From the NCBI RefSeq assembly GCF_000024405.1, contig NC_013517.1, positions 434,001-498,000 on the forward strand: a DNA stretch of 64,000 nucleotides. Reading direction: 5' to 3'. Position numbers and translations under genes: made by a program. Source of the DNA: Sebaldella termitidis ATCC 33386. Lineage in GTDB: Bacteria; Fusobacteriota; Fusobacteriia; Fusobacteriales; Leptotrichiaceae. Position 1 is the stretch's first letter. Every line of letters starts with the position of its first letter. Below the pieces are notes generated by a model. It made no database searches, was not told the DNA's origin, and saw nothing but the letters and a program-made list of their open reading frames with translations. This document shows positions 25,431 to 55,509 of this stretch, piece by piece.

Positions 25431-26689
25431 AATACATAAAGTCTAAGATAATAAAGGAAACATTGAAAAAATTAGATTTAGAGGAAGAAAGAAAGTTTTT
25501 GAGAGATTTGACATCAAACGGGATTCAGTATATAGAGAATAATTTTGAGCTCCAGCTTCTTGAAATGGAGAAAAATATAGAAAACAGATATCTTGAGAAG
25601 GAGCAGGATTATACAATCTATTCTATGCCTGTAAACATAGAGATATATAATAAATATTCAGAGATATTCTTTCCATTGGATAAAAAAGATACAGAAAAAA
25701 AAGAAGAAATATTGAAAAGAAGCGGAAACAGGGTATTTTTAAGAAAAATATATTTAGATGAAGATTTAGGTAGAATAGATGAGTTTAAAAAGCAAAGTTT
25801 CAGAGGAAATCTTAAATTAAATGGAACTTCATATAATTATGAAATAAGCGTGGAATATGAAGAAAAGTATCTAAATCAGGAAAAAGAGATATTGAGTGTA
25901 TTTGGTAAGAATGGTATAAAGTGGCGGGTACTTTATACACCATACAGCAGAAGATTTTTTAATCTTTATATCAGCATGCTTCCGGATAATATAGGATTTG
26001 ATAAATTAGGAGAAGTAAAGATTAATTATGGTGAATTTACAGAAAGTGTGCATGAGAACTATTTTTTGGTAAGTAATATTCAGGAGAAAAGTATACTTTT
26101 GGATAAGGCAAGAGGAAAAACTATTGACGGGAATATGTCAAGATATAAGATTTATTCCAATGAGTCTAAAACGGATCTTGTGAAAATTACTGACGGAAAG
26201 ATATATGCCATAGAAAGATTTGAGAATTTTCTGCATATTTATACAGATACTGAGCCTGAAGACGAATGGAAGCTTTGGAATATAAGAAAAATAGACAAAA
26301 TGGAGAAATATTCAGATCTGAAATTTATTCCGAAAGGGAACAGGAAGAAAATAGATGTTCTGGGAGCTTTGAAGGAAAACTCGAAATCAAGGACAAGAAG
26401 TGAAAGCGAAGTGTTTGAGATAATAAAGAGTTATTCTGAGATAAAAGGTGTAAGGCTGGCAAAGGTAAAGCTGAATGAGTATGTCGGTAACCCTGTGCCA
26501 GGTTACGATTCGAACATAGCTTTTAATAAAACTGTGAGTATACCAAGGAAGAAAGAAGATACCTTATTTTTGTATTTCAAATATGAAAAACAGGATAAGT
26601 ATTTTTATGATGAAATAAGCTTTCTGCTCGCCAGTGTGGAGTATAAGTTTCCTGAATATAATGTGAAGGGGGTATTGGAATGGAGATGA
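25427..26689 (+). CDS. Unknown protein, second of the paralogous pair
   Basis: A 420-residue soluble protein related to the preceding one. Shared order: a charged helical N-terminus; a segment of the form FLRKIYLDEDLGRI (compare FVENLFLKESLGEI); a beta-rich core; a C-terminal region with LYFKYEKQDKYFYDEISFLLASVEYKFPEY (compare LKFDFVDDYLKTEIISYIITALNYQNKDF). It overlaps the upstream gene by 4 bases and the downstream one by 10. It is an unknown family, probably part of a complex with its paralogue and with the Hsp70-like protein of the same operon. Confidence 0.8.
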   Translation: MKYIKSKIIKETLKKLDLEEERKFLRDLTSNGIQYIENNFELQLLEMEKNIENRYLEKEQDYTIYSMPVNIEIYNKYSEIFFPLDKKDTEKKEEILKRSGNRVFLRKIYLDEDLGRIDEFKKQSFRGNLKLNGTSYNYEISVEYEEKYLNQEKEILSVFGKNGIKWRVLYTPYSRRFFNLYISMLPDNIGFDKLGEVKINYGEFTESVHENYFLVSNIQEKSILLDKARGKTIDGNMSRYKIYSNESKTDLVKITDGKIYAIERFENFLHIYTDTEPEDEWKLWNIRKIDKMEKYSDLKFIPKGNRKKIDVLGALKENSKSRTRSESEVFEIIKSYSEIKGVRLAKVKLNEYVGNPVPGYDSNIAFNKTVSIPRKKEDTLFLYFKYEKQDKYFYDEISFLLASVEYKFPEYNVKGVLEWR

Positions 26690-27396
26690 AAAAAGAACAG
26701 TATCAGTATATCTGGTATTCGCTTCATAAACTGATAAGTGAGGATAAAGATACTGAAAAGATATATTTCAAAGTATCGCCGAAAATCTCGCCATATATGG
26801 AACTGAATATGGAAGAGATAAATTACGCTGCTTTGGATAAGGAATATATATTGGAGACTAATCCTTTTTACAGATTTACTCATGTGTTTAATGAGTTTAT
26901 GAATCCCGATCTTCCGATTGGCGAAAAGCTGAAGGGGGAGATGGTTAATATACTTCTTCATATGCTTGGAAATCTGGATTTACAGGAAGGACTGAATAAG
27001 AGGATAATTCTGAACAGGATAATAATAAGGGAGCTGGAAGAGGGAAGATACGGAGAAGAGATACAGAAGTGTTTTAGTGTTTTGAACAGAAGGGAAAAGA
27101 TAGCAATAGCTGACGGGATACAGGATAAGTATAGATATGACAGGGAATGGGAGATATTCAAAAAGGTAATGTCAAAGATATATAAGGATTCTATAATTTA
27201 TGATTCTATAGATGAACAGGAGAAAATAATAATTTATATAAATGAGAAGAAGAGTTCCGAGAATAAGAAAAAGGAACTTTTGATAGAGAAGCTTTTTATG
27301 CCTTTAGGACTTAAGAGCAGATGTTTTTGGGGTGCACATTTTCCTGTATTGGGAGTAGATGAAGTGATGAGGATCGGGGAGATGGTTATTTTTTAG
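26680..27396 (+). CDS. Unknown helical protein of the injection-system operon
   Basis: A 238-residue, mostly helical soluble protein with no recognised motif. It has a compact hydrophobic C-terminus (MPLGLKSRCFWGAHFPVLGVDEVMRIGEMVIF). The ATG lies inside the last codons of the preceding gene, and AGGGGG is just upstream. The position between the paralogous pair and the Hsp70-like gene suggests a subunit or adaptor of the same complex; no biochemical role can be given. Confidence 0.75.
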   Translation: MEMKKEQYQYIWYSLHKLISEDKDTEKIYFKVSPKISPYMELNMEEINYAALDKEYILETNPFYRFTHVFNEFMNPDLPIGEKLKGEMVNILLHMLGNLDLQEGLNKRIILNRIIIRELEEGRYGEEIQKCFSVLNRREKIAIADGIQDKYRYDREWEIFKKVMSKIYKDSIIYDSIDEQEKIIIYINEKKSSENKKKELLIEKLFMPLGLKSRCFWGAHFPVLGVDEVMRIGEMVIF

Positions 27397-27424: not shown

Positions 27425-30373
27425 ATGAAAAAACTGTATCATGAGGAAGAATTAAGGGAAAAATCATATTATGACTTATATGAAATTGTAATAGAAGAAA
27501 GGATACTGGATTCATATGCAGCAACACCAACAAGGGAGCAGCTTATAAGTCTGCTTTTGAAATACAGGGGATACAGGCTTGAGAATAAAATCAGGGAATA
27601 TAATGAAAACGGTTTTTTTTATGTCCAGCAGTTTCTGGACAGAAAGCTTGGTAATAAATTACATCCTGAAGGAAGAATAAGAATACCGTATAAAATAATA
27701 ATATATAATGATCTGGATCTGACAAGGGAAGATAACTATAAAATAGTTATTCCGGAATATGTGAACAGCAGTAATGTTTTTCTGGTAAATGCCAATAATT
27801 ATTTATGCGGAATTCTTAGTCTGGAAAAAGATCTGGATTCGATGGATGAGTATTATCTGGTGAGTAAAAAGGAATTTTTGAATTTAGACGGACTAAAAAA
27901 CAGCAAATTTTCTCTGATATTTTTTAAAGAAAGAGATGCTAAGATTCCTTATGAATTCTATAATATGGAGGATATTGGAGAAATGTCGAGATATCCGGGA
28001 AAAATTGATTATTATTGTATAGGGATAGAAAATTTCGAGTACAGGGAGCTGGAAAAAACAACAGCAGTACTGTGTATAGACTTTGGGACGGCGAATACTA
28101 CAGCAGGAGTGTATCTTGACAGAAACTATGTGAGTAAGCTTCCAAGCAATGATATTCTGAATGGAAATATAAAACTAGATGAGATAAATTATGTAAAATT
28201 TCCTGACGGAGAGTGGGATTACAGTATAATCTACCCTACGATTACATATATTGAGAATTGTAAAGATGTGAAAGATATAAAATATCTGTTTGGTCATGAT
28301 GCAAGGAGAAAACTGGAGTCCAATGATTATATAGTAAACGGGACAATATTTTACGGATTAAAAAAATGGGTTTATGAAAATAATAAAAAAGAGAAAATAG
28401 TCGATGAATATGGGAATATGCGTGAGGTAGAGAGGAAAGAAATAATAAAGGCTTATTTGAAATATGTAATATCACGGGCAGAGTATTTATTTAAATGTAA
28501 GTTTACAAAGATACATGCCACAAGTCCTGTGAGACTGAAAGAGCAGTTTTTGAATATGTTGCAGGATATTTTTACTTTAGAAATAAAAAAAACAGGGAGA
28601 AGGGAAATAATAACTAAGATACCTGTACCAAGGAAAGAAATAAAAATAAATCTGGAAAAAAAATCAGATAAAATAGAAAACACAGAGACCAAAAATCTGA
28701 CAAATGAGGAAATTTTAGAAAAGTTTGGCGGTCATGGTGAAAGAGCAGATGAACTGAAAAATGAGCTTTTAATTTCTCAGATTGAAATAGATAATGAGTT
28801 TGCGGAAGAGGAAATTAAAGCTGTAAAAACAGATGAAATAAATGTAATTGAACAAATCATGGAAGATGATGAATATATTACGGAAATCACATATGTTGAT
28901 GAAGTAATCGGAAAAGAAACAGTTATGGAATATGAAGTAATAAGTGAAAATGCTATGGATGAAGCTGTAGCTGTTCTTTATAATACTATAGAATCAGGAC
29001 TGGGAAAGAAAAATTATGAAGAAGGTACAGAATATAAGGCTTTGGTAATAGACTGCGGTGGAGGAACAACAGATCTTGCAGCATGTAGTTTTCAGATAGG
29101 GAGCACTCTTGATGTGGCTTATCATCTAGAAATGAAAACGAGTTTTGAGAATAGTGATGAGAATTTTGGAGGGAATAATCTTACTTATCGGATAATGCAA
29201 TATTTGAAAATAATACTTGCCAATAATTATATAAATAATACAGAAATAAGCATAGAGAATTTAATACCATATGCTAAAGAGAGTATTTACAATTCAATAA
29301 ATGAAATAGGAATAGATAAAATTTTTGAAGTTTTTGAGGAAGAGTATCAAAAAGCTGAAAAAATAATTCCTACTAAATTTTCAAAATTTGAAAATAAACT
29401 AAGTGAAGAGTACAGGAAAATAAAGAGTAATTTTTATCTGCTTTGGGAAGCTGCTGAAAATCTCAAAAGAGAGTTTTTTAAGAAAGATGACACATTAAGG
29501 ACAAGATTTGACAAAGAAAAAAATTATGAAAAAAGGAATGATTTTCATATAACTGCATTACGAACATGGAATTTATATATTAATGAAAATGGAAGACTGG
29601 AGAAAGAAGCGGAATTTCCAAAGAATATTTTTACAATAAGAGAACTGGAAAAAATAATAAGGATTGATATTTATGAAATGCTTAGGAAATTTCTGGACAC
29701 TTATTATGACGGCGGAGAATTACAAGAATATGCACTGATAAAATTAAGCGGACAATCCACAAAAATCGGGATATTTCAGGATGTCTTAAAGGAATTTGTT
29801 CCCGGAAGGCAGATAGAATTCAAGACAAAGGATAATGAGAAGGACGGGTACGAACTGAAACTTGCCTGTCTGAACGGGGCAATAAAGTATCTGGATTACA
29901 GAAGATTCGGACATATGAATGTAACAATAAAGAATGAGATTCCTGTGATACCGTATTCAGTATGGGGGAAAACATATAAGAATGATGATGTAGAGATAAT
30001 AAAAACGTCAAACAGGGCAAATGAAAATCTCGGATATATAGATAAAGTATCTTCTGTCATGGAATTAAAACTGTATCTGAAAAATATGGAAGATGATGTC
30101 ATAAGAGAGATAGTATATAAGAATGACATAGATTTTGTGGATAAAGATGCCAAACCACTAATAGAGGGTCTTAGGATGAAAATAAGCCAGAATGAAACAG
30201 ATAATGTACCTAATGATATAACAAGATTTCTGGTTTATACAGATGAGAACTGCTGGGGGTTTTATATATGTCCGATCAGGAGAAAAGACGACCAGATATG
30301 GATGGGAAGAATAGATTATTATCCATTTGAAGATAAAATAAATGAAATAAGTTTTTTTGATGGCGAGCATTAA
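27425..30373 (+). CDS. Large Hsp70/actin-fold ATPase in a VgrG/PAAR operon
   Basis: A 982-residue protein with the two phosphate-binding loops of the Hsp70/actin superfamily: DFGTANTTAG at about residues 219-228 and DCGGGTTDLA at about 543. A 200-residue extra domain precedes loop 1, and a long acidic insert (about residues 400-510) separates the loops. The C-terminus is unlike the DnaK substrate domain. It may be an assembly chaperone for the spike or its effectors. It somewhat recalls SrfB-type virulence proteins, but I cannot confirm that. GGAGAG precedes the ATG; vgrG follows 35 bases later. Confidence 0.8.
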   Translation: MKKLYHEEELREKSYYDLYEIVIEERILDSYAATPTREQLISLLLKYRGYRLENKIREYNENGFFYVQQFLDRKLGNKLHPEGRIRIPYKIIIYNDLDLTREDNYKIVIPEYVNSSNVFLVNANNYLCGILSLEKDLDSMDEYYLVSKKEFLNLDGLKNSKFSLIFFKERDAKIPYEFYNMEDIGEMSRYPGKIDYYCIGIENFEYRELEKTTAVLCIDFGTANTTAGVYLDRNYVSKLPSNDILNGNIKLDEINYVKFPDGEWDYSIIYPTITYIENCKDVKDIKYLFGHDARRKLESNDYIVNGTIFYGLKKWVYENNKKEKIVDEYGNMREVERKEIIKAYLKYVISRAEYLFKCKFTKIHATSPVRLKEQFLNMLQDIFTLEIKKTGRREIITKIPVPRKEIKINLEKKSDKIENTETKNLTNEEILEKFGGHGERADELKNELLISQIEIDNEFAEEEIKAVKTDEINVIEQIMEDDEYITEITYVDEVIGKETVMEYEVISENAMDEAVAVLYNTIESGLGKKNYEEGTEYKALVIDCGGGTTDLAACSFQIGSTLDVAYHLEMKTSFENSDENFGGNNLTYRIMQYLKIILANNYINNTEISIENLIPYAKESIYNSINEIGIDKIFEVFEEEYQKAEKIIPTKFSKFENKLSEEYRKIKSNFYLLWEAAENLKREFFKKDDTLRTRFDKEKNYEKRNDFHITALRTWNLYINENGRLEKEAEFPKNIFTIRELEKIIRIDIYEMLRKFLDTYYDGGELQEYALIKLSGQSTKIGIFQDVLKEFVPGRQIEFKTKDNEKDGYELKLACLNGAIKYLDYRRFGHMNVTIKNEIPVIPYSVWGKTYKNDDVEIIKTSNRANENLGYIDKVSSVMELKLYLKNMEDDVIREIVYKNDIDFVDKDAKPLIEGLRMKISQNETDNVPNDITRFLVYTDENCWGFYICPIRRKDDQIWMGRIDYYPFEDKINEISFFDGEH

Positions 30374-30407: not shown

Positions 30408-32264
30408 ATGTCAATAAAGAATAAATCCCTTAAAGAATTAATAGAACAGGATAAAAAAGAACAGAGAGAGCTTTATGGAGGGAATAAAAGTTCTTCGGGT
30501 TCATCTGTTAACAAAGATTTGCCGGAAAATCAGCAGGAAATACAGGAGAGACTGAATGCTTTGAGAGGAGACGCATTAAACTCCGGAGACAGAAACTCAG
30601 AGGGGAACAGTGCGGTAAACAATGCTTTTTCTAATGTGTTATCAAAAAGTAATTTTGTAAAGGGGATGGCAGCAGGAGCAGCTGGTTCAGGGCTCGCGAA
30701 TAATATTGTCGCAAATAATAATAGAGATATGACGGATTATGTTCAGTATCAGGTAAAAAATGCCGATATCACAATAAATGATGAAATCCTTGATCTGAAA
30801 GATGTGGATTTCAAGATCAGGAAGATTATGAACAAACATGATGTTCTTGAACTTAATTTTAATTTTTTTACTAAGGACGCAGATAAGTATAAAGGATATG
30901 TCTATACTCTTATGAATACAATCGGGATTGGGCTGAACAGGGTAAAAGAATCAGGGGAAGATGATTTTAAGGCTGTTTTTGACGGGATAATAGAAGAGAT
31001 TGAGGTAATACAGAGTAAGGGAGAACTTTCATCAGGGCGGATACTGGCATATTCGAAATCAATACTTCTAGATAAAGTACTGAAATTCAGAACATTCACA
31101 AATCCGGAGCTTACAGTGGACGGAGTAATAAATGAAATAGCTGCGGAGTATACTGATGTAGTGTTTCATATAGATGACAGCCTTGTGGGAAAACCAATAC
31201 CACATATTTTATTCCAGTTTGGAGAAACAGATTTTGAATTTTTGAACAGAATGCTGAATATAATGAATTACGGACTGACAACACACTTAGGTTCTGTAGT
31301 GTGTGGCCTTCTTGAACTGACAGTATATGATCTTCCAGTAGAAACTGAAATTTATACTACTATAAGACGTGATAAGAATTTATCATATAAGATAAAAGGG
31401 ACTAATCCTTTTAATGTGGTGGAAAAGGTAAATATGATAATGGAAGACGAGGAAGCTGTGAGGGTGGTTTATAGTTCCGATATGTGGATAGAAAATAAGA
31501 CAGTACAGTGTGAAATGGTGCTTGTAGATCTGAATGACAAACAGCTCAGACATGATTTTCCTTTGATAATAAATGAGAAGATGAGCGGTTCTGCAGTGGA
31601 AGCTAAGGTAGTGGAAGTAGGGGGAGAAAATGGAATAGCTACAGTTACACTGGATTTTACAGATGGTCTGGCAAGGCTTACAGACAGGAAATCACAGGCA
31701 TATAAGGATAATTATGCGGGGATATTTAAGTTTCCTTATACTACGATGTATTCGAGCACAAACAGCGGTATGTTTGTGACACCTGAGGCAAATGACGTAG
31801 TTTCTGTGTACTTTCCAAATGGGAATGACAGTCTGGCATATGTGCAGGGTTGTGTAAATAATCCCGGAAATGAGAGGGCAAGTAATCCTAATGTGAGAAA
31901 TTATACTCTTGGCGGGGATGATAATGCAGGAGGAGCACCTTTGTTTAATTTTCAGCTGAGCAGTAACAGTTTTAATGTGAGTACTACTGATCATGTGGGG
32001 CTTTCTTCCAAGAATATGATGAATATTTCTACAAGTGAGCAGCTGGTGGTGAATAGTAATAACAGGACTGTTACAACTAAGGGGAACTCTTTCGAGGAAG
32101 CAGATAGCATGTGTATGATATCTAAAAGTAAAACATCAGTGATATCTAATGACAGTGTGGCGGTAGTTAGTAAAAATAAAGTAACTGTAGGTGGGCAATC
32201 TTCAACAAATGTTGGCGGTGGAAGTTTCACTCATATCACTGGAAAAGCAGCTAAATTAAATTAG
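30408..32264 (+). CDS. VgrG-type spike protein (first copy)
   Basis: A 618-residue protein with the VgrG/gp27-gp5 plan. About 120 N-terminal residues are low-complexity and carry the motif DKKEQRELYGGNKS, shared with the second copy. The gp27-like ring domain (FKIRKIMNKHDVLELNFNFFTKD, GIIEEIEVIQSKGE, LFQFGETDFEFLNRMLNIMNYG) is typical of late-control D proteins. A gp5-type OB fold follows (VTLDFTDGLARLTD ... PEANDVVSVYFPNGNDSLAYVQGCVNNPG). The Ser/Asn/Val-rich end has a beta-helix needle pattern. It should form the trimeric tip that carries the PAAR-like effector encoded two genes downstream. Confidence 0.92.
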   Translation: MSIKNKSLKELIEQDKKEQRELYGGNKSSSGSSVNKDLPENQQEIQERLNALRGDALNSGDRNSEGNSAVNNAFSNVLSKSNFVKGMAAGAAGSGLANNIVANNNRDMTDYVQYQVKNADITINDEILDLKDVDFKIRKIMNKHDVLELNFNFFTKDADKYKGYVYTLMNTIGIGLNRVKESGEDDFKAVFDGIIEEIEVIQSKGELSSGRILAYSKSILLDKVLKFRTFTNPELTVDGVINEIAAEYTDVVFHIDDSLVGKPIPHILFQFGETDFEFLNRMLNIMNYGLTTHLGSVVCGLLELTVYDLPVETEIYTTIRRDKNLSYKIKGTNPFNVVEKVNMIMEDEEAVRVVYSSDMWIENKTVQCEMVLVDLNDKQLRHDFPLIINEKMSGSAVEAKVVEVGGENGIATVTLDFTDGLARLTDRKSQAYKDNYAGIFKFPYTTMYSSTNSGMFVTPEANDVVSVYFPNGNDSLAYVQGCVNNPGNERASNPNVRNYTLGGDDNAGGAPLFNFQLSSNSFNVSTTDHVGLSSKNMMNISTSEQLVVNSNNRTVTTKGNSFEEADSMCMISKSKTSVISNDSVAVVSKNKVTVGGQSSTNVGGGSFTHITGKAAKLN

Positions 32265-32272: not shown

Positions 32273-33079
32273 ATGAAATTTGATTTACTAAAAACTACTG
32301 GGAAAAAAATATATAGAATCAAAAAAATCAGGGAAGTTCAGATGATTGATGAAAAAGCAAAGAAAATAGAAGACTTTGTATTACAGATAGAAAGTGAAAA
32401 AAATGATTCTGATAAGATAATTATAAATTTTGAAATATTAAAGTTGTTACATACTGACAATTATATAATAGAACAAAAATATTATAATTTGATGAGAAAC
32501 AGAAAAGTGTTGTTTAATCTGGAGGGGAAATACATAGATACATTAAATAAGAATAAGATATTAACAGAATGGGATGAATTCAGAGAATTAATGAGTAAGG
32601 ATATAGAAACTCCAAATTTAAAAACTGAAAAGGAATTTAAACTGATGAGAGGGTTTTTGGTGGAAGAAAAGTATATAGTAAATTCATATGATATATTTTC
32701 GATATTTTTTCCAAAGATATATAATAAAGAATTTATTAATGAAATATATTATAATGACAGTATGGAGTATTTTTTCGGAGCTGTTAATATACCTGTTAAA
32801 GTAAAAGTTAATGTTAAAAATGAAAATGAAAATTTTAGAATATCAACAACCCATGACATAGATGATATATATTTTAGAAAATATGAAATAAAAGAAGTAC
32901 TCGAATATAATAAAATAAATGTTGATTATAATAAAAATATTATAATGAGTTTTTTTAGTTATGACTTATTATTTGATAAGGAAAGACATCTCCTAAAAAG
33001 CGGTGAAATAGAGTTAGGCGGAGAAATAAAAGATATCTATAAAAATTATACAAAATTTCAAATAGAGGAGATGGTATAA
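32273..33079 (+). CDS. Putative effector adaptor between VgrG and PAAR-like effector
   Basis: A 268-residue soluble protein of unknown family. In position it matches the gene at 52159-52905: both sit between a vgrG and a PAAR-like effector gene, both are 250-270 residues, and both begin with a short beta strand and helical region. In T6SS loci this place is held by adaptors or chaperones (Tap/DUF4123, Eag/DUF1795 families), but no motif of these was recognised. Its stop shares the A of the next ATG (TAATG), so translation is coupled with the effector. Confidence 0.65.
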   Translation: MKFDLLKTTGKKIYRIKKIREVQMIDEKAKKIEDFVLQIESEKNDSDKIIINFEILKLLHTDNYIIEQKYYNLMRNRKVLFNLEGKYIDTLNKNKILTEWDEFRELMSKDIETPNLKTEKEFKLMRGFLVEEKYIVNSYDIFSIFFPKIYNKEFINEIYYNDSMEYFFGAVNIPVKVKVNVKNENENFRISTTHDIDDIYFRKYEIKEVLEYNKINVDYNKNIIMSFFSYDLLFDKERHLLKSGEIELGGEIKDIYKNYTKFQIEEMV

Positions 33080-34569
33080 TGGATAAAGATATCGTCTATG
33101 AAGACTATCTTTTGGTTTGTGAAGCAGGAGCAGCAATATGTCAATTAAAATGCCATAATAAAATGTCTGTAGATGTAGGCGGGAAGTGCAGTATTCCATT
33201 TGGAATAGCAACTACAGCGGATAATAAAGAAGAGAATATAGGTTCATTAGATGAAGAATATTTTGGAATGTGTTTATATAAAGGGAAATGTGATTTGCAG
33301 GTATTGGGCGAGTGGACAAAGCAGCATGAAAGTTTATATATAGGTTCTTCAAAAGCTCTACTTATAGATTCAAAACTGCCGTGTAATATTTCACTGTCAA
33401 CAAATGTATCAGACATGAGACTGAGTAAATTGAAACAATTTGTGGCTTCTGACAACAATATGACTATGTCAGTAAATGCTACACATGAAGGTGACCCTAG
33501 TGATATTACAGCCTCCGGTGGTCAGCTATCACCTGGTTCGGCAGACATAACAATAACAGGAACTAAATATATATCAATATTTAAGGATTTTGATTCTGCA
33601 ATGGGGATGATGGCAAATTCAAGAGTATTACAAGAAAAAGCAGAAGGAGATTTAATAAATGCAGCAACTATAGGGGCTGTTGGTGGAACTATGATGCTTT
33701 TATTTCCACAGGTGGGAGCGGCGATTGGGAGTTATGCAGCAAAAGATATGGCATTTTCATCAATATTAATAGGTGGAACATTAGATAATTTAAAATCAAG
33801 ATATGATAAATATAAGGATTTGGAAAGAAAAGCGGATACGCCGGAAATGAAAGAGTTCTGGAGCCGTCAGTTTTGGCTGGAGGCAGGAGCAGAATACGGG
33901 CCGATGATGTTGGTTGGAGCATATCAGGCAGGGCCGGCTGTGAAGAGTAAGTTTACAGAATTGAAAGCATATTATTCAAGAGGTTTGTCAGAAGAGGAGA
34001 TGATACTCTATGGTTTAAGAAATAACGGAGCAACAGTAGCGGCAGGTAAAAGTGTGGAAGGCGGGGTTATTGGAGATGACGGGAGGTTTTATACAGCTTT
34101 AGATGATGAGCTTTTATATGGATATAATGAGGCACAAGATGCTTATTCAAGAATTTTAGGAAAAAGAAAATTTTCTGAATTATCGGTTCAGGATCAGAGA
34201 TTATTGGCACGTGAGTTTTCTAAGAGATCACCGGTTAAGATACCGGAAAATGCTAAGATTAAAGTTCAAACAAAACTAGGAGGCTATGAACAGATATCAT
34301 ATAGATGGAGAGATGCAAATTATAAATACGAGATAAGATGGCATACTCGAACTCCAGGTGCACCCGCAGATCAAGGAAATACTTGGGTTGTAATGAGAGA
34401 GACTCCTGGAACCGGAGGAAATACGAAAAGATCTTATCATTATTTATTAGATGATAATACATGGGTGACTGGAAAAGAATGGTATGATGCAATTGATGCT
34501 AGAGGTAGTGGAATGTCAACTTTGAGACAAATAGAAATTTTAAATATGGGACATTGGAGTGATTATTAA
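33079..34569 (+). CDS. PAAR-like (DUF4280-type) effector with Ntox30-like toxin tip
   Basis: A 496-residue modular effector. Residues 1-120 have the cysteine-rich pattern of DUF4280/PAAR-like caps (VCEAGAAICQLKC, GKCSIPFGIATT, LYKGKCDL). Residues 190-310 are a Gly/Ala-rich hydrophobic and helical pre-toxin region. Residues 312-338 are the linker GKSVEGGVIGDDGRFY that recurs in the array. The tip (about 385-496) has ISYRWRDANYKYEIRWHTRTPGAP and ends LNMGHWSDY; it resembles polymorphic toxin type 30, a predicted RNase, from memory of the family. The immunity gene follows with TAATG overlap. Confidence 0.8.
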   Translation: MDKDIVYEDYLLVCEAGAAICQLKCHNKMSVDVGGKCSIPFGIATTADNKEENIGSLDEEYFGMCLYKGKCDLQVLGEWTKQHESLYIGSSKALLIDSKLPCNISLSTNVSDMRLSKLKQFVASDNNMTMSVNATHEGDPSDITASGGQLSPGSADITITGTKYISIFKDFDSAMGMMANSRVLQEKAEGDLINAATIGAVGGTMMLLFPQVGAAIGSYAAKDMAFSSILIGGTLDNLKSRYDKYKDLERKADTPEMKEFWSRQFWLEAGAEYGPMMLVGAYQAGPAVKSKFTELKAYYSRGLSEEEMILYGLRNNGATVAAGKSVEGGVIGDDGRFYTALDDELLYGYNEAQDAYSRILGKRKFSELSVQDQRLLAREFSKRSPVKIPENAKIKVQTKLGGYEQISYRWRDANYKYEIRWHTRTPGAPADQGNTWVVMRETPGTGGNTKRSYHYLLDDNTWVTGKEWYDAIDARGSGMSTLRQIEILNMGHWSDY

Positions 34570-42690: not shown

Positions 42691-42694
42691 TAAG

Positions 42695-43296: not shown

Positions 43297-43299
43297 TGG

Positions 43300-43885: not shown

Positions 43886-43908
43886 AGATTTTGGAAAGAG
43901 CTGCATAT

Positions 43909-44496: not shown

Positions 44497-44497
44497 T

Positions 44498-45989: not shown

Positions 45990-46085
45990 TAAAATTAGAG
46001 AAAAGTCTAATTCATTTAAGTAAGTGAATAATTAAATAGAATATTTTTTGTGGAAAGAAGTAATATTTTATAGTTTAAAAAATAA
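45990..46085 (+). repeat. Array A spacer repeat, last copy
   Basis: A shortened spacer, matching the 36039-36178 copy closely in its right half, leading into the mini EndoU remnant. Confidence 0.65.
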
Positions 46086-47798: not shown

Positions 47799-48614
47799 AT
47801 GAAATTTAGAGTAAGTATAATGCCAAGAAGTGATATGCCTGGGACAGGAGCAGGAGGCAGCAGTATTGGAGGAGCACTTTCAGAAGGAAAAGGAACATTT
47901 GGAGCACCAACAGGATACTTTGGGAATACTACAAGTGGTTTGGTAGCAAGCAATTCATCTAGTAACAGCGGGTTTGGAAGTTCCGGTCTGCCGGGCTTAG
48001 GGTCTTTAACAGGACTTCTTGGCGGGGGGCAAAGCGGGTTAATATTGACCCCTGATGAAATAACAGATGTGTCATTTAGTGCATCGGATTTTTCAGTTAG
48101 TTCCACAGCCAATACAGAATCAAATGTCACTGTAAGAATAGCTGGAAAGTTATTTTCACAAATAGAAGAAGGAAGTACCAGCTTTGATTCTCCGTTAAGT
48201 ATGAATTCATTATTAACGGGTTTTATGGATGATAAATTAAGTGGTTTAACAGATGGATTAAATAAAGGAATGCAGATTTTAGGAAATACTTTTACTTCTG
48301 GTTTGAGTTCAACATTAACTGGAATGATCGGGAAATTCGGCGGGAATAAGTTTGGGTTAAATAACCTGTACAGTATGAATTTTGAGAATACTATAGAACT
48401 GGCAAATTGGGCCTTAGCATATGGAGAAAAAACAGACTACAGGGATGTAGTAGTGGAGATAATGATAAATGAGGGAGTATCAAAAACATATGTATTGCCA
48501 GACATGTTTGCAATAGATTATGATGAAAATTTAGGAGTAGGACGCGGAGAAGGATTTTTTAATCTGGTGTTGAGACAAAAAAGATACAGTTCAAGAAAAA
48601 TAGAAATAAGGTAG
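47799..48614 (+). CDS. Putative tail-tube (Hcp-like) or tip protein with Gly/Ser-rich leader
   Basis: A 271-residue protein. The first 85 residues are rich in Gly, Ser and Thr (SSNSGFGSSGLPGLGSLTG) with no signal peptide. A beta-rich body follows (TPDEITDVSFSASDFSVSST..NVTVRIAGKLF, then ELANWALAYGEKTDYRDVVVEIM and NEGVSKTYVLPDMFAIDYDE). The body suggests a small beta-barrel as in phage tail tubes or Hcp, which would fit its place at the head of a VgrG operon; this is inference. Similar proteins may carry misleading protease names in databases. Confidence 0.6.
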   Translation: MKFRVSIMPRSDMPGTGAGGSSIGGALSEGKGTFGAPTGYFGNTTSGLVASNSSSNSGFGSSGLPGLGSLTGLLGGGQSGLILTPDEITDVSFSASDFSVSSTANTESNVTVRIAGKLFSQIEEGSTSFDSPLSMNSLLTGFMDDKLSGLTDGLNKGMQILGNTFTSGLSSTLTGMIGKFGGNKFGLNNLYSMNFENTIELANWALAYGEKTDYRDVVVEIMINEGVSKTYVLPDMFAIDYDENLGVGRGEGFFNLVLRQKRYSSRKIEIR

Positions 48615-49518: not shown

Positions 49519-49530
49519 AAGGAGGCAGGT

Positions 49531-50106
49531 GTGAGAGTAAAATATACAGTTGACAGCACAGCTTATTATTTAAATATACATACGAATAATAAAACAAGCA
49601 GTCTTGGAATTAAAGTAGCCAGTAAAGATATGCTGATCTTATGTTATCAAAAAGATATAGCAGTACTTAGGGATATTTCAAATCATTTAAAAAATATTTA
49701 TGAAAATGAAAGAAAAGGAACAAAGAATAAAATTAAATATATAAAAACATTACATTTTATGGCACAGGAAATATTATTTCATATTGATGCCTACGTGCAC
49801 GTGCTTGCAGAAGCTCAGATAAAGGGAATAAAAGTTGATTCAAATAAATATACAGAAAAATTAGCTGAACTAATTGATAAACTGATTGTAGAACCGTCTA
49901 AAGTAGCAGATGTAGGAGCTAATATAACTAAAGATCATGACAGTGCAATAATAAATGTAGGTTACACTGCAAGAATCCCAAGTGGTTTTATGATCAACAA
50001 ACAATTTTATAAAATTGGGGAATTATTAGGCTTCCCCTTAGAAAATACAAGTGATGTATGGTATGAATGCAGCTATAAAGGAGAAACCAAAAAAGTGAAA
50101 AAATAA
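49531..50106 (+). CDS. Unknown protein upstream of the second vgrG
   Basis: A 191-residue soluble protein. The first third is beta-like; the middle is helical (ISNHLKNIYENERKGTKNKIKY..HFMAQEILFHIDAYVHVLAEAQ); the end is beta-like (NVGYTARIPSGFMINKQFYK). AAAGGAGG precedes a GTG start. No family recognised. Operon position suggests a structural or accessory part of the spike complex. Confidence 0.7.
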   Translation: MRVKYTVDSTAYYLNIHTNNKTSSLGIKVASKDMLILCYQKDIAVLRDISNHLKNIYENERKGTKNKIKYIKTLHFMAQEILFHIDAYVHVLAEAQIKGIKVDSNKYTEKLAELIDKLIVEPSKVADVGANITKDHDSAIINVGYTARIPSGFMINKQFYKIGELLGFPLENTSDVWYECSYKGETKKVKK

Positions 50107-50120
50107 AATGGGAGGATATG

Positions 50121-52151
50121 ATGTCTGAAAAAAAGAAATTGATGATGGATTTGATTGAGAAAGATAAAAAAGAACAAAGGGAATTATATGAGGGGAATAA
50201 GAGTTTAGGGAGTACCTTAGATACAAGGAATAAAGCTTTTTCAGAAAATTCAGAAGAAATCAAAAGAAGATTGGAAGAAGTAAATGGTCAAGTATCTGGA
50301 AATAGTGAAAAAACATCATTAGGAACAAGTGATATGATAAGCGGAGCTTTTTCAGAGGTATTGTCAAAGAATAATTTTGTAAAAGGAATGGCAGCGGGAG
50401 CAGGAAGTGGTTTGCTAAGTGCAGCAGGTCTGGGAAACATTATGGGGATTCATGATTTTGTAGAATTTCATTCAAAAAATGCGGATATACTTGTCAATGA
50501 TGAAAAACTGGATTTTAAAGACGTAAAATTCAAAATATCGGAAGTAATGAATGAACATAGTGTACTCTATATGGATTTTACTTTTTCAACAAAAGATACG
50601 GATAAGTATAAAGGATATGTTTACAGCCTTATGAATACGGTAAAAATTGATTTGAACAGAATAAAAGATACAGGAGAAGAGGATTTTAAAGCTGTATTTG
50701 ACGGAATAATTGAAGATATTGAAATAACAGAAAGTAAGGGAGAACATTCTTCTGGAAGAATACTGGCGTATTCAAAGTCAATATTGATGGATCGGGTTCC
50801 TAAATTTAGATCTTTTCAAAATACGGATTTAACAGTAGATGAGGTAATAAAAGAAATAGGTGCTGAATATCCGGAAATTACAATACATATAGATGATAGT
50901 TTAGTAGGGAAAAAGATCCCGTATATGATGCTTCAGATAGAAGAAACAGACTTTCAGTTTATTAACAGAATGCTTAACATAATGAACTACAGTGTATCAT
51001 GTCATCTGGGGAGTCTGGTATGCGGTCTTTTGGAACTCACTGTGTATGATCTTCCAATAGAAACTGAGTTTTATACAGCAATAAGGAAAAATAAAAATTT
51101 ATTATATAAAATAAAAGGAACAAATCCATTTAATGTCGTGGAAAAAGTTAATATTATAGACGGAGAAAGTGAGGTAGTAAGGGTCGTATACAGCTCTGAC
51201 ATATGGATAGAAAATAACATAATCCAATGCGAGATGGTGCTGCTTGACTTGAATGAAAAGCAGCTAAGATATGACTTTCCACTGGTAAAAAACAGAAATA
51301 TGCTGGGAAGAGTAATAGAAGGAAAGATAATGGAAGTGACTTCTGAGGAAGGAATTGCTGTGATGACTCTGGATTTAACAAGTGGTTTGGCAAAATTAAC
51401 AGACAGAGAGTCTGTAGCATATCCTGATAAATATGCTGGTTCGTTTAAATTTCCTTATATGACACCAATGAGCCAGACAAATACCGGGTTTTGGCCGAGT
51501 CCTGAGGCAAATGACCAGGTAGTGCTTGTAATAGATGATTTTAACGAGTCATTATCATATGTGCAGGGAGCTGTAAATAATCCCGGGAATGGAAGGTTTA
51601 GTGATCCTACAGTAAGAAACTTTACATTGCCGCCGGATCCTTCTGTTATTTCTCCGGAAAATGCAGCGCCATATAATGAAATGGGTATAAAGAATTCTTC
51701 ATCGGGGACTTATGGAAGAAAGGGAGACAGCAGCGGGAATAAGGCTGCTCATAAGAGCGGTGGAAGACCGGCAGCACATTTTCAGCTGGATAGCTCGAAG
51801 TTTGTGGTGGATGTGACGAGTTTTATAAGTTTGAGTGCTAAAAGCAGTGTTAGTATTAATTCACAGGATACGATGGGAATATCAGCTAAGAGTGTAATGG
51901 GGATATCTTCTGATAATGTGATGAATATAGACGGGAAAAATATGTTAACTGTAGGCGGATCGGCCGGAACAATTACTGTAAATTCTAAAGGACTGATGTT
52001 AGTGGGGTCGGAAGCAAGTATATTTGTTAATGCTACAGATAATATAGCTCATACATCTAAAGTTATCATGTCTTCAGGTTCGGATACTGCAACATATGGC
52101 AGTGGTTCAGTTGCTGTTATAACTGCTGATGATATAAAATTAAACGGGTAG
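50121..52151 (+). CDS. VgrG-type spike protein (second copy)
   Basis: A 676-residue paralogue of the VgrG at 30408, with the same leader motif (DKKEQRELYEGNKS), gp27-like ring (FKISEVMNEHSVLYMDFTFSTKD, ETDFQFINRMLNIMNYS), gp5-like OB fold (PEANDQVVLVIDDFNESLSYVQGAVNNPG) and Ser/Val-rich needle (SAKSSVSINSQDTMGISAKS). It has about 60 residues more than copy 1, mostly before the needle (GRKGDSSGNKAAHKSGG). The ATG at 50121 suits the GGAGG at 50111-50115 better than the ATG at 50118. It should carry the Hint-containing effector encoded at 52915. Confidence 0.92.
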   Translation: MSEKKKLMMDLIEKDKKEQRELYEGNKSLGSTLDTRNKAFSENSEEIKRRLEEVNGQVSGNSEKTSLGTSDMISGAFSEVLSKNNFVKGMAAGAGSGLLSAAGLGNIMGIHDFVEFHSKNADILVNDEKLDFKDVKFKISEVMNEHSVLYMDFTFSTKDTDKYKGYVYSLMNTVKIDLNRIKDTGEEDFKAVFDGIIEDIEITESKGEHSSGRILAYSKSILMDRVPKFRSFQNTDLTVDEVIKEIGAEYPEITIHIDDSLVGKKIPYMMLQIEETDFQFINRMLNIMNYSVSCHLGSLVCGLLELTVYDLPIETEFYTAIRKNKNLLYKIKGTNPFNVVEKVNIIDGESEVVRVVYSSDIWIENNIIQCEMVLLDLNEKQLRYDFPLVKNRNMLGRVIEGKIMEVTSEEGIAVMTLDLTSGLAKLTDRESVAYPDKYAGSFKFPYMTPMSQTNTGFWPSPEANDQVVLVIDDFNESLSYVQGAVNNPGNGRFSDPTVRNFTLPPDPSVISPENAAPYNEMGIKNSSSGTYGRKGDSSGNKAAHKSGGRPAAHFQLDSSKFVVDVTSFISLSAKSSVSINSQDTMGISAKSVMGISSDNVMNIDGKNMLTVGGSAGTITVNSKGLMLVGSEASIFVNATDNIAHTSKVIMSSGSDTATYGSGSVAVITADDIKLNG

Positions 52152-52158
52152 GTGGAAA

Positions 52159-52905
52159 ATGAAATATCAGATAGAAGCAGTCAGTATAGTGGAAAAGGAA
52201 GAACCAGTTGATATTACATTATTAAAAATGACATTGACTACAAGAATAGAAAAAGATGTCATGATCTTTCATATTTTAGATACAAAAATATATAATAAAA
52301 GTTTTTTTATTCAATATATGAATCCTTTTAATGCTGTTAGAGAGATAAAGATGGTTTTAGACAGAAATCAAAGAATACAAGGAGTGGTAAATTACAAAGA
52401 AGTGAGAGAAAAAACAGAGAAATATTATACTGAGATGGCTGATAAAATGAAAAAAGCAAATAAAAAAGACCTGGAAGAAATCTTTTTTGATATGGCTTAT
52501 CAATCATTCCAGTATGAAGAAAATATAATAAGGGAGTTATTAAGAACAAGTTATTTCTATCCTTTTATTGGCGGAAATTACAGGAACAATGAAAGCGATA
52601 ATATTTCACTGGAAGGATTTCTTCCCAACTATAATATTATAGAAAAACTAGAGAAAATATTTTTTAGAGATAAAAACAGCACATATATAAGAGGTGGTGT
52701 TGACCAGTCGAAAGTTTACGCATATTCATTAAGTGAACAAATGAAGGAATTAGGACTTGAATATAAACCGGAGATGCTTAATCTTTCTTCTGAAAGCAGG
52801 ATTTATTATAAAGAACGGGAAATTGACAGGGTAGAATCGTATAAACAAGGAGGAATCAAAGGTTATTATCAAAAAAAAGAAAAGATATTTATAGACAGAA
52901 TTTGA
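52159..52905 (+). CDS. Putative effector adaptor (second copy, by position)
   Basis: A 248-residue soluble protein, charged and helical in the middle (EKYYTEMADKMKKANKKDLEEIF), with no recognised motif. Like the gene at 32273 it lies between vgrG and the PAAR-like effector, separated by 7 and 9 bases. Sequence similarity to that protein is weak at best. A loading adaptor or chaperone role is inferred only from position. Confidence 0.65.
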   Translation: MKYQIEAVSIVEKEEPVDITLLKMTLTTRIEKDVMIFHILDTKIYNKSFFIQYMNPFNAVREIKMVLDRNQRIQGVVNYKEVREKTEKYYTEMADKMKKANKKDLEEIFFDMAYQSFQYEENIIRELLRTSYFYPFIGGNYRNNESDNISLEGFLPNYNIIEKLEKIFFRDKNSTYIRGGVDQSKVYAYSLSEQMKELGLEYKPEMLNLSSESRIYYKEREIDRVESYKQGGIKGYYQKKEKIFIDRI

Positions 52906-52914: not shown

Positions 52915-55020
52915 ATGGGAGAAATTAAATTTGAGGAAGTATTTGTATGTCATCAGGCTTATATATATTGTCCATTTGGAGAATTTATACAGCCGGTAGA
53001 AGCTACTGTAAATGAGACAGCTACTTTTCAGGGGAAAAGAGTATTAACCAAAGATGATGACGTGGTTGGCAGGAATATTCATCCATTTAAAAAATGTGAT
53101 AAAAAAGGTGAATGTCTGCTTTCAGGAACTGTTTCCTGGCAAAAAGCCAGAACAGATATAAAGGTAAACGGATCACGGCTGCTGACAGGGGAATCATACT
53201 TTATGTGTCCGCATGTGAGAGGTACAAAGATAGAATTTAAAGATGTAAAACAGGAACCGGGACCAGAAGTAGACAAGAGAAGCAAGTTAGAGATATTTAC
53301 TGATGAAGCAAGCGGATTAATGAGTGCTCTTATGGGAATAAATGGAGTATTTCAAGCAACAGAAGGAGCAGTACAGGTAAAAAAAAGGTATGAAAATATT
53401 TATAATGCAACAGTTAAAGATGTAAAATATTTTTCAAAAGATAATCTTAGGACTCTTGAAGAAATATGGAGTTATTCATTACCAGGTCAGTTCACACATG
53501 GAGATCCATATTCAAAAGATATGAAAAGCTATATAAAGAATGAGGGGATATTTGCTTATGAAGAAGGAGAGGAGGGGTATTCGAGCGTAACAGGTAGCGT
53601 GCTGTCCTCAATGGCACTGGATGTTATACATCCTGCATACGGAGCAATGGAAGATGCGTATGATTTCAAGAATGCCTATAACGACGGAGATAAATTAGGT
53701 ATGGCCCTTTCAGCAGTAGGTTTTATTCCTGTATTAGGTGCCGGAATAAAAAAAGGAACAGGTAAAGCAATGAAAATTGCCGGTGAATCAAAAATGCTGA
53801 AAAAGGGCTCTAAAATAGGAGATGCGATAGTAGACAGCAAAGCTGTGAAACTATTTCAAAATACTTTATCTGGAAAAGTAAATAAAGTGGTACGGGGATT
53901 TGGCGATACTTTGAAAAGTATAACGGAAGCCGGGTTAAATTTGAAAAAAAGGTTTGTGAGTTCTACAAAAGCTCTTAACAGAAAAATAAATATGGCAATT
54001 TGTAATTTGATCGAATCTGGATGTTTTGTAGGCGGGACTTTAGTTAATACTGAATATGGACTTAAGAAAATAGAAAATATTAAAATTGGGGAGAAAGTTT
54101 ACACTTATGATTTAGTTAACAGAGAAGTAATTTTGAAAGAAGTAACAGAGACTTTTAATGAAAGAGTCAGTAAAATAATTAAAATAGAAATAGAAAATAA
54201 TGTTATAATTGAAACAACTGTCGAGCATCCTTTTTATGTGAAGGATATAGGATGGGTGGAAGCTGGAAAACTGAAGGAAGGTGATAAATTATTTTCCAGG
54301 GAACTGGGAGATACTGAAATAGCAGCAGTTCGGGAAGATATATATTTAGACAGGGATGTATATAACTTACAATTAGAGGGGAATCATAATTTTTTTGTTT
54401 CTGAGTTGGAGCTGTTGGTGCATAACGATACAGCTTGTGCGGAGTTGCTTAAAAAGCTGGATGATGATATAGCTAAATTGATTAAAGAAGGGGCTTCTGA
54501 GGATGTTATAAATAGTTTAAGAAAACAGAGAAAGCATATTATAGAAAAAAATCTTAATGAATTTCTAAATGGTACTAAAAAATTTGATGATGTGCTTGAT
54601 GATTATGCAAGATTATATGCTGATGTTGTTGATTCTAATGAAATATGGCGTTGGGAACGAGATATGATAGGTGGATCAGAACTAACTGCAAGACAAAGAA
54701 AGGCAATTAGAACAAAGGCATTTGATGACGGTTTATTACCAATTGTAGAGTTTAAAGCAGGTACGAAGTATCCAGACTTTGAAAAAGCTGGTTTAATAAT
54801 TAAAGAAGATATGTTACCAGAAGAGTTGTGGAAAGCATCAGATAGACGTCAATTTGATTGGTTAGACAATAGATTAGTGGATGGGCGTCCTCGAGGAACT
54901 ACTTGGAATCATTCAGATATAGCAGGTAGAATGGAATTGGTTCCATTTGGTATTCATAATGTAATAAATCATAGAGGTGGAAGAAGTCCTGGACAATGGG
55001 CTTATGTTTTAAGAAGATAG
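52915..55020 (+). CDS. PAAR-like effector with Hint domain and HNH-type nuclease tip
   Basis: A 701-residue modular effector. Residues 1-115 are a DUF4280/PAAR-like cap (HQAYIYCPFGEF, NIHPFKKCDKKGECL, MCPHVRG). Residues 210-360 form a pre-toxin helical region. Residues 370-503 are a Hint domain that starts with Cys (CFVGGTLVNTEYG), has TVEHPFYV and ends LLVHN before Asp. It may cleave itself to free the tip, as known for Hint toxins. The tip (504-701) ends TTWNHSDIAGRMELVPFGIH and NHRGG, an HNH/Endo VII-type DNase signature of the WHH class. A SUKH immunity gene follows. Confidence 0.88.
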   Translation: MGEIKFEEVFVCHQAYIYCPFGEFIQPVEATVNETATFQGKRVLTKDDDVVGRNIHPFKKCDKKGECLLSGTVSWQKARTDIKVNGSRLLTGESYFMCPHVRGTKIEFKDVKQEPGPEVDKRSKLEIFTDEASGLMSALMGINGVFQATEGAVQVKKRYENIYNATVKDVKYFSKDNLRTLEEIWSYSLPGQFTHGDPYSKDMKSYIKNEGIFAYEEGEEGYSSVTGSVLSSMALDVIHPAYGAMEDAYDFKNAYNDGDKLGMALSAVGFIPVLGAGIKKGTGKAMKIAGESKMLKKGSKIGDAIVDSKAVKLFQNTLSGKVNKVVRGFGDTLKSITEAGLNLKKRFVSSTKALNRKINMAICNLIESGCFVGGTLVNTEYGLKKIENIKIGEKVYTYDLVNREVILKEVTETFNERVSKIIKIEIENNVIIETTVEHPFYVKDIGWVEAGKLKEGDKLFSRELGDTEIAAVREDIYLDRDVYNLQLEGNHNFFVSELELLVHNDTACAELLKKLDDDIAKLIKEGASEDVINSLRKQRKHIIEKNLNEFLNGTKKFDDVLDDYARLYADVVDSNEIWRWERDMIGGSELTARQRKAIRTKAFDDGLLPIVEFKAGTKYPDFEKAGLIIKEDMLPEELWKASDRRQFDWLDNRLVDGRPRGTTWNHSDIAGRMELVPFGIHNVINHRGGRSPGQWAYVLRR

Positions 55021-55029: not shown

Positions 55030-55509
55030 ATGATAGAAGTAGATAAAAAAAGTATAGTATATCCATTACCAAGTAATGAAAGAATAGCTGATTTTGAAAA
55101 AGCGTATAGAATAGAGTTTCCGTCAGAGTATAAGGATTTTTTGAAAAAATATAATGGTGCAACATTGTTAACAAATATTTTGAAAATAAGAGATTTTGAA
55201 TATATAGTAGAGAGATTTTTATGCTTATTAGATGAACCTAATGAAAATAAAATTGATGGTTGGTATGATTTAAGTGTTGTTTTGACACAGTTAGATGATC
55301 GACTAATTGAAGATGAAGATATGGTTGGAATGAACATAATACCAATTGCATCTATGTTTGCAGGAAATTTTATATGTCTGGATTATAGAAATAATAGTGA
55401 TCCGGAAATTGTAATTTGGTTTCATGAAGAATCAGGTGAATTTAGTCCTGTGACTGATAAAATAGCTGATAGTATAAATGACTTTTTTAATATGTTGTCT
55501 AAAGATTAA
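55030..55509 (+). CDS. SUKH (SMI1/KNR4)-family immunity protein
   Basis: A 159-residue protein with the SUKH pattern: a short helix pair, EFPSEYKDFLKKYNGA, then beta strands with IIPIASMFAGNFICLDYRN. The SUKH superfamily neutralises nuclease toxins, commonly HNH-type, so pairing with the upstream tip is well supported by family knowledge. The ATG is 10 bases after the toxin stop, with a GGAG site. Confidence 0.88.
   Translation: MIEVDKKSIVYPLPSNERIADFEKAYRIEFPSEYKDFLKKYNGATLLTNILKIRDFEYIVERFLCLLDEPNENKIDGWYDLSVVLTQLDDRLIEDEDMVGMNIIPIASMFAGNFICLDYRNNSDPEIVIWFHEESGEFSPVTDKIADSINDFFNMLSKD

What the first reader, a model, noticed from the sequence alone, without database searches (positions are those of the whole stretch)
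47799..48614. Gly/Ser-rich protein with tube-like body heads island B
The low-complexity leader with no signal peptide and the beta-rich body suggest an Hcp-like or tip component with an unusual extension. If it is the tube protein, it links the islands to a real contractile system.
Basis: inference. Interest (0 to 1): 0.5.

Follow-up and report, generated by a model that had tools for sequence, protein, structure and literature searches.

The report
Tube-like carrier of unrecognised injection machine
This gene encodes a variant of the inner-tube protein of a spring-loaded injection machine that standard family searches miss in this bacterial group, and it probably carries its own small toxin, so it points to an overlooked weapon in gut and mouth bacteria.

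Summary
The 271-aa ORF is real. Its AlphaFold2 model has a tube/Hcp fold: 49 of 50 listed PDB matches are named as T6SS, eCIS, tailocin, phage-tail or GTA entries. The Gly/Ser stretch is not a leader but an insertion between strands 1 and 2; a second, helical insertion follows. It is not the main tube. A 145-aa relative elsewhere in the genome sits beside a 720-aa protein whose (poor) model matches contractile sheaths (Z 16.3 to 10.8; next row 6.2). Sheath and tube co-occur in 34 of 98 Fusobacteriota genomes (two partial or broken), and DUF4280 tracks the sheath (31 of 34 with, 3 of 64 without). No genome passes the T6SS VipB model. In Leptotrichia the extended tube gene is 90-96% identical, but homology ends near its stop codon and different genes follow; the window's tube/membrane-protein/191-aa trio recurs there. 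Best reading: a cargo-specific tube paralogue of an undescribed contractile injection system, perhaps the 'unknown phage-like translocation system' speculated on in 2021 (PMC8651086). Assembly, secretion and toxicity are untested.

The parts
47799..48614 (+). 271-aa tube-fold (Hcp-like) paralogue, extended form
47823..48038 (+). Gly/Ser-rich insertion, residues 9-80, between strands 1 and 2; pLDDT below 50 for residues 16-36 and 38-76
48150..48359 (+). second insertion, about residues 118-187, partly helical (helices 135-161 and 163-178), between strand 3 and the conserved helix
48625..49518 (+). 297-aa membrane protein, 10 bp downstream; homologues (35-38% identity over 279-281 aa) follow tube genes or tube fragments in four Leptotrichia loci; candidate immunity protein of the cassette (inference)
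49531..50106 (+). 191-aa protein without hydrophobic segment or family; homologues (32%) in third position of two Leptotrichia cassettes; candidate cargo (inference)
50118..52151 (+). VgrG-like spike protein (Pfam Phage_GPD over cut-off; TIGR03361 far below its cut-off)
52159..52905 (+). 248-aa protein between spike and toxin; no family found; possible adaptor (inference from position)
52915..55020 (+). 701-aa DUF4280 (PAAR-like) - HINT - WHH nuclease polymorphic toxin
55030..55509 (+). SUKH-family protein, likely immunity
24243..26689 (+). two members (395 and 420 aa) of a conserved ~420-aa family; relatives of the 420-aa one in 24 of 98 phylum genomes, 22 of them with the sheath; role unknown, baseplate suspected from synteny
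26680..27396 (+). 238-aa member of a conserved ~240-aa family, mostly next to the ~420-aa one in the loci fetched; baseplate suspected
27425..30373 (+). 982-aa conserved protein with an Hsp70/actin-like motif (motif recalled; no Pfam hit); 28 of 98 genomes, all 28 with a sheath hit
30408..32264 (+). 618-aa VgrG-like protein of island A
33079..34569 (+). 496-aa DUF4280 (PAAR-like) protein of island A

Best explanation
The protein is a cargo-specific tube-fold (Hcp-like) paralogue of a contractile injection system that known-family searches miss. The machine has a 720-aa sheath-fold protein and a 145-aa tube protein (G000:C1:1308495-1311345, outside the window), a phospho-regulatory set (kinase, PP2C, two FHA proteins), conserved partners partly encoded in island A, VgrG-like spikes and DUF4280 PAAR-like toxins. 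The extended tube protein probably joins the tube as a ring or ring segment and loads the product of the gene pair just downstream (48625-50106), one member being cargo and the membrane protein its immunity. The spike, DUF4280-HINT-WHH toxin and SUKH protein would form a second effector-immunity set of the same island. Shown by computation: tube fold of this protein, sheath fold of the neighbour of the 145-aa relative (low-confidence model), co-occurrence with DUF4280, synteny, 3'-end cassette replacement in Leptotrichia. Inferred: ring formation, assembly into the tube, cargo loading, which gene is toxin, and firing into other bacteria.
For: Tube fold: AF2 core mostly at pLDDT 78-92, 55-67 around residues 91-110; best VIA Z 9.9 (2.9 A, 115 aligned); 49 of 50 listed rows titled as T6SS/eCIS/tailocin/tail/GTA, one (4tv4) 'putative uncharacterized'. 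Sheath: the first 37 of 50 listed rows, all Z 10.8 or more, come from contractile tails, tailocins, eCIS or T6SS; next row 6.2. Sheath and tube: 34 of 98 genomes have both, none has sheath alone; two are partial or broken (G050 sheath 531-720 only, G076 fragments of both); in 26 of the 34 they lie within 260 bp (my reading of the rows). DUF4280 tracks the sheath: 31/34 vs 3/64; inside genus g15 5 of 5 vs 0 of 7. Clades: all 11 sheath-adjacent sequences form one clade (100/100), the four extended forms including this one another (97/88). Cassette: five Leptotrichia extended tubes have identity 0.92 or more per 20-aa window up to residue 260, then 0.66 and 0.61; pairwise DNA homology ends between nt 874 and 929 of an 894-nt CDS and the following genes differ; three C-terminal tube halves, 92-95% identical to each other, head other gene sets, one with a partial Tae4 match (PF14113, E 2e-10). 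The window trio (tube, membrane protein, 191 aa) recurs complete in two Leptotrichia loci (L184, L130). Canonical T6SS sheath model: 0 of 98 over cut-off.
Against: The tube model is moderate (mean pLDDT 67.1) and Foldseek E-values are weak (best 9e-4). The sheath model is poor overall (pLDDT 58; Foldseek best E 0.065; BFVD: rank 1 an uncharacterised myovirus protein E 8e-4, rank 2 a tail sheath E 0.09), so the sheath call rests on VIA-align. Profile comparison with the sheath and tube of the P2-like prophage in the same genome found nothing, though against single sequences. G089 (same genus, 99% complete, 290 contigs) has extended tubes, VgrG-adjacent tube, DUF4280 and the 420-aa protein but no sheath hit; G068 (88% complete) likewise lacks it, and G053 has DUF4280 only. 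Three of the four extended forms have no VgrG-like hit in the stretch fetched (20, 35 and 8 kb). In seven Leptotrichia genomes sheath and main tube genes are not adjacent. The 3'-cassette pattern comes from five genes in four genomes of one genus. Behind two of the orphan tube halves the membrane protein stands without the 191-aa partner. The Tae4 match covers only profile positions 3-59 of 125, and NCBIfam and PDB searches did not confirm it. No test of ring formation, secretion or toxicity.
Confidence: 0.62

Rival explanations
1. It is the tube initiator or spike adaptor: a single ring that joins the trimeric VgrG to the main tube (the role that Afp5/Pvc5-type or gp48/gp54-type proteins play; roles recalled).
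For: It lies 1.5 kb upstream of a VgrG-like gene in the same run. A VgrG-adjacent tube form exists: in 7 of 57 distinct sequences the order is 240-aa protein, tube, VgrG. Foldseek ranks eCIS baseplate chains 6rao_F and 6j0n_n high.
Against: The same genome has another family member, the 200-aa protein at 1.764 Mb, directly before a VgrG. The extended forms are a separate clade and none of the four is directly next to a VgrG gene.
Confidence: 0.2
2. It is an evolved effector tube protein: the Gly/Ser and Gly-rich helical insertions are themselves the delivered activity, for example membrane-active helices.
For: Large insertions in two loops of a small fold; helices 135-161 and 163-178 in a Gly-rich stretch. 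T6SS toxins fused to Hcp1 domains are described (passage of PMC3482391).
Against: No hydrophobic segment of TM type; in Leptotrichia the insertions lie in the constant part while the 3' end and following genes vary.
Confidence: 0.12
3. It is a decayed or passenger relic of a prophage tail, without a machine.
For: A genome of the same genus keeps such genes without a detectable sheath (G089). The island regions hold VgrG fragments and an IS-like fragment.
Against: Intact frame with a 57% identical full-length homologue in that genome; no match in 50,697 phage records for the protein, the 145-aa form or the 720-aa form; co-occurrence of sheath, tube and DUF4280 over 98 genomes.
Confidence: 0.06

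Closest known systems
[quoted passage not shown]
   Same: Predicted fold; paralogues in one genome; neighbours VgrG, PAAR-like toxin, immunity.
   Different: No match to PF05638 over cut-off in the genome; two large insertions; no VipB-family sheath over cut-off in 98 genomes.
eCIS tube and baseplate-ring proteins (AFP 6rao, PVC 6j0n/6j0b, Streptomyces CIS 9gts)
   Same: Predicted fold, Z 8.7-9.1 for these entries.
   Different: No detectable sequence family; the sheath and tube locus carries kinase, PP2C and FHA genes.
Contractile sheath proteins of phages, tailocins, eCIS and T6SS (relevant to the 720-aa partner)
   Same: First 37 listed structural matches.
   Different: 720 aa, no convincing Pfam, NCBIfam, PHROGs or PDB sequence match; poor model confidence.
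PAAR_H2 (DUF4280) with Phage_GPD spikes, the 'unknown phage-like translocation system' of PMC8651086 (passages read)
   Same: Same pairing of Phage_GPD spike and DUF4280 toxin without known T6SS or eCIS genes.
   Different: There reported for Firmicutes and without a tube or sheath; here Fusobacteriota, with candidates for both. Only one Bacillota match was found here (Megamonas plasmid, 35%); Bacillota genomes could not be searched.
Polymorphic toxin systems with displaced cassettes
   Same: Conserved carrier, variable 3' end, orphan C-terminal pieces heading other gene sets.
   Different: The constant part is a tube-fold protein, and the cargo appears to be a separate downstream gene rather than a fused domain.

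Membership tests
Hcp / tail-tube fold superfamily | Tube-protein fold | tested here: met
   AF2 model, best Z 9.9, 49 of 50 listed rows T6SS/eCIS/tailocin/tail/GTA; Foldseek weak, best E 9e-4
Hcp / tail-tube fold superfamily | Hexameric ring and stacking into a tube | not testable with these tools
   Monomer predictions only, both jobs used
T6SS Hcp (Pfam PF05638) | Sequence match to the family over its cut-off | tested here: not met
   Two sub-cut-off hits elsewhere in the genome, none at this gene; no Pfam family for the protein
Type VI secretion system | TssC/VipB-family sheath (PF05943) | tested here: not met
   0 of 98 genomes over cut-off, one sub-cut-off hit with stops in G032; E. coli control positive
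Type VI secretion system | TssJLM membrane complex and ClpV | not tested
   No search was made for these families
Type VI secretion system | VgrG spike with PAAR or PAAR-like tip | tested here: met
   Phage_GPD over cut-off, TIGR03361 far below cut-off (22.7 vs 186.35); DUF4280 over cut-off
Extracellular contractile injection system | Sheath recognised by a known model (PF04984) | tested here: not met
   Genome hits only at 1509 kb (over cut-off) and 974 kb (below; P2-like prophage tail), none at the 720-aa gene
Extracellular contractile injection system | Free extracellular particle | not testable with these tools
   Needs microscopy
Contractile injection systems in the wide sense | Contractile sheath beside the tube gene | tested here: met
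   720-aa protein: 37 rows of sheath-bearing entries Z 16.3-10.8, then 6.2; within 260 bp of the 145-aa tube gene in 26 of 34 genomes (rows). Caveat: pLDDT 58, Foldseek E 0.065
Polymorphic cargo carriers | Constant carrier with variable 3' end and exchanged downstream genes | tested here: met
   Five genes in four Leptotrichia genomes; not tested on the window's own clade, whose copies are too divergent

The most novel reading that the evidence does not exclude
Fusobacteriota, including oral Leptotrichia, and probably some Bacillota carry a separate lineage of contractile injection system, invisible to current sheath and Hcp models, that answers the 2021 question of how DUF4280 toxins with Phage_GPD spikes are delivered; and its tube paralogues are themselves polymorphic carriers whose 3' ends recombine so that each copy acquires a new cargo and immunity pair.
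Probability: 0.55. Interest if true: 0.88.

Novelty: new variant of a known kind. Interest (0 to 1): 0.76.

Why it matters
[quoted passage not shown] The sheath and tube candidates named here make that testable with defined genes. If right, surveys that rely on current T6SS and phage-sheath models would miss a contractile weapon present in about a third (34 of 98) of the Fusobacteriota genomes held here, among them Leptotrichia hongkongensis and an oral-taxon Leptotrichia (145-aa tube gene). The extended tube genes would add a mode of effector evolution: exchange of cargo cassettes behind a constant tube protein.

Tried and rejected
Sequence searches for the target protein in Pfam, PHROGs, NCBIfam and PDB found nothing. 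Profile searches of the 720-aa, 145-aa, 420-aa and 240-aa families against PDB sequences gave only weak hits to unrelated proteins. Profile comparisons of three of these families with genes of the resident P2-like prophage (sheath, tube, a 376-aa baseplate candidate) gave nothing; the prophage side was a single sequence each time, so the test is weak. Phage collection: no match for the 720-aa, 145-aa and 271-aa proteins; plasmids: none for the 720-aa, one Megamonas plasmid (35%) for the 145-aa form; the 271-aa protein was not searched against plasmids. IMG/VR scan with the 145-aa alignment: 9 pattern matches, no relative. PF06841 (gp19) in the genome: none, but that model passed its cut-off in none of the 14 control genomes either.

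The idea that the paralogue at 967.6 kb belongs to the contractile tail about 5 kb away was dropped: that tail is a P2-like prophage with its own sheath and tube. The idea that the Gly/Ser tract is a leader was dropped. The idea that the protein is the main tube was dropped. A look at membrane genes behind tube genes: within the next two same-strand genes 14 of 14 for the variant tubes shown, 2 of 8 for sheath-adjacent and 1 of 7 for VgrG-adjacent ones (read; a crude hydropathy scan; 8 of 11 and 7 of 20 of the latter classes were shown); within the next three it does not separate the classes.

Rows dropped before counts: the tree used 47 of the 57 distinct tube-like sequences; left out were six short ones (109-124 aa) and four long outliers (341-576 aa). 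Alignment A1 used 20 of the 30 sequences listed. Loci L137-L156 were not included in the synteny maps. The three genomes counted with tube but no sheath (G040, G068, G089) match the 145-aa query only weakly, through other family members.

Novelty searches in the held library (open-licence PMC only, no preprints). No title or abstract start in these capped listings describes this system in Sebaldella or Leptotrichia; subscription papers and preprints were not searched. Papers: passages read of PMC4431377, PMC5014421, PMC8651086, PMC3482391, PMC4793230, PMC9230969; the rest seen as search listings.

Recalled, from no call: the organism name Sebaldella termitidis (from genome size), the roles of Afp5/Pvc5 and gp48/gp54, the Hsp70/actin-like motif, the DnaJ and Sel1 labels of neighbours (read from sequence, not scanned), the IS110-like and P2-like labels, Hcp as carrier of small T6SS effectors, and that clostridial relatives of the 145-aa protein are annotated 'membrane-associated protease 1'.

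Full report
What was checked. The ORF at 47799-48614 is intact, 271 aa, and starts a same-strand run: membrane protein, 191-aa protein, VgrG-like spike, 248-aa protein, DUF4280-HINT-WHH toxin, SUKH protein. The protein has no family match. Its Gly+Ser content over residues 9-80 is 50%, the highest of the 64 window ORF products compared.

Relatives. In the same genome it has relatives at 4.052, 0.968, 1.764 and 1.311 Mb (a sixth hit at 3.767 Mb, E 0.02, lies in an unrelated transporter-like ORF). The one at 1.311 Mb is a 145-aa protein. The alignment of 36 members shows one shared core. The long forms keep strand 1 at the very N-terminus and carry insertions in two places. The Gly/Ser tract is therefore a loop, not a leader.

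Fold. VIA-align on 996 chains put Hcp1 8z7k first (Z 9.9, 2.9 A, 115 aligned); of the 50 rows listed, 49 are titled as T6SS, eCIS, tailocin, phage-tail or GTA entries and one (4tv4) only as uncharacterised. Foldseek alone is weak, best E 9e-4. The uniformity of the list is the argument, more than the Z.

The machine. The 145-aa relative lies 0.25 kb after a 720-aa gene and is followed by a 259-aa protein, a DnaJ-like protein, two FHA proteins, PP2C proteins, a kinase, a 339-aa protein, a 926-aa protein, a VgrG-like protein, a lipoprotein-like gene and a DUF4280 protein. The 720-aa protein has no convincing sequence family. Its model is poor (pLDDT 58), yet VIA-align on 992 chains places 37 chains from contractile tails, tailocins, eCIS and T6SS first, Z 16.3 to 10.8, and the next row, a protease, at 6.2. 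Foldseek shows only weak hints: 9gtp E 0.065, P1 sheath E 0.14; in BFVD rank 1 is an uncharacterised myovirus protein (E 8e-4) and rank 2 a tail sheath (E 0.09).

Distribution. In 98 Fusobacteriota genomes, hits to the 145-aa query occur in 37 (three of them weak, through other family members), to the 720-aa protein in 34 (G050 partial, G076 fragments), DUF4280 in 34, the 982-aa protein in 28, the 420-aa protein in 24. All 34 sheath genomes have a tube hit; all 28 genomes with the 982-aa protein have the sheath; DUF4280 occurs in 31 of 34 with and 3 of 64 without (Fisher p 1e-18, not corrected for kinship; genus level 13/1/2/13, p 2e-5). Within genus g15, 5 of 5 sheath genomes and 0 of 7 others have DUF4280. 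By the positions, sheath and tube genes lie within 260 bp in 26 of 34 genomes; in seven Leptotrichia genomes they are not adjacent, and G076 has only remnants. The VipB model of the T6SS passes its cut-off in 0 of 98.

Synteny and tree. In 64 fetched loci and the window, two arrangements recur: sheath, 145-aa tube, 259-aa protein, DnaJ-like, FHA, PP2C, kinase, 982-aa-type protein; and 420-aa, 240-aa, second tube form, VgrG, often DUF4280. Among 57 distinct tube-like sequences, 11 follow a sheath gene, and 7 stand between the 240-aa gene and VgrG. In the tree of 47, sheath-adjacent forms are one clade (100/100); the four extended forms, including the target, are one clade (97/88); the relation between clades is weak, and VgrG-adjacent forms do not form one clade.

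How it works. Five extended tube genes in four Leptotrichia genomes are 90-96% identical in DNA, with pairwise homology ending between nt 874 and 929 (gene 894 nt; one pair has a further 72-nt match inside the following gene); identity per 20 residues falls from 0.92 or more to 0.66 and 0.61 over the last 37 residues, and different genes follow. Three C-terminal tube halves (109-111 aa, 92-95% identical) head other gene sets. One of these sets holds a protein whose first part matches Tae4, a T6SS amidase effector family (PF14113, E 2e-10, profile 3-59 of 125; not confirmed by NCBIfam or PDB searches). Several sets hold a multi-pass membrane protein followed by a soluble protein. The window's trio has this form, and both partners have homologues in the same positions in two Leptotrichia loci (35-37% and 32%). 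I infer that the extended tube protein carries the product of its cassette, as Hcp carries small effectors in the T6SS (recalled), and that the membrane protein is the immunity partner. The order tube, membrane or lipoprotein, soluble protein fits that in the Tae4-like set but does not prove it.

Against this. G089 and G068 keep variant tubes, spikes and DUF4280 without a detectable sheath; both are drafts. Three of the four extended forms have no VgrG-like hit in the stretch fetched. Sheath and tube models are of poor and moderate confidence. The cassette argument rests on one genus. Membership in the T6SS fails on the sheath and Hcp sequence tests; membership in the wider class of contractile injection systems rests on predicted folds.

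Novelty. DUF4280 as a PAAR-like tip is known (PMC5014421, passages). [quoted passage not shown] In the listings of my searches of the held library I saw no paper that names a tube or sheath for it or reports it in Sebaldella or Leptotrichia; preprints and subscription papers were not searched. I rate it a new variant of a known kind.

Noticed in passing
window 33079-46278: An array of short ORFs linked by sequence to the island A DUF4280 protein (a cluster of 9) alternating with a second cluster of 131-138 aa (6 members), one of the first kind with an EndoU nuclease domain; looks like displaced toxin and immunity cassettes.
   Followed up: no
window 37935-38415: VgrG-like fragments, 53-57% identical to the island B spike, one with an in-frame stop.
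   Followed up: no
window 47299-47523: Minus-strand ORF resembling an IS110-type transposase fragment just upstream of the tube gene (label recalled).
   Followed up: no
L018 8031-19928 (G000:C1 about 973-985 kb): P2-like contractile prophage tail about 5 kb from another extended tube gene.
   Followed up: partly
L136 7764-11289 (G049): Tube-like proteins of 303 and 576 aa beside the 883-aa protein; the 576-aa one is long enough for more than one domain (not examined).
   Followed up: no
L130 6156-6530 and L187 2026-2400: Short (124 aa) copies of the main tube form that head cassettes of a multi-pass membrane protein and a soluble protein.
   Followed up: partly
L187 8902-9381: Partial Tae4-like protein behind an orphan tube half and an LRR protein with a lipoprotein-like start.
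   Followed up: partly
L060 19372-20612 (Megamonas funiformis plasmid NZ_CP048628.1): A 203-aa relative of the 145-aa tube protein next to a VWA-domain gene: the family reaches Bacillota.
   Followed up: partly
G089 and G068: Genomes with variant tubes, spike, DUF4280 and the 420-aa protein but no sheath hit.
   Followed up: partly
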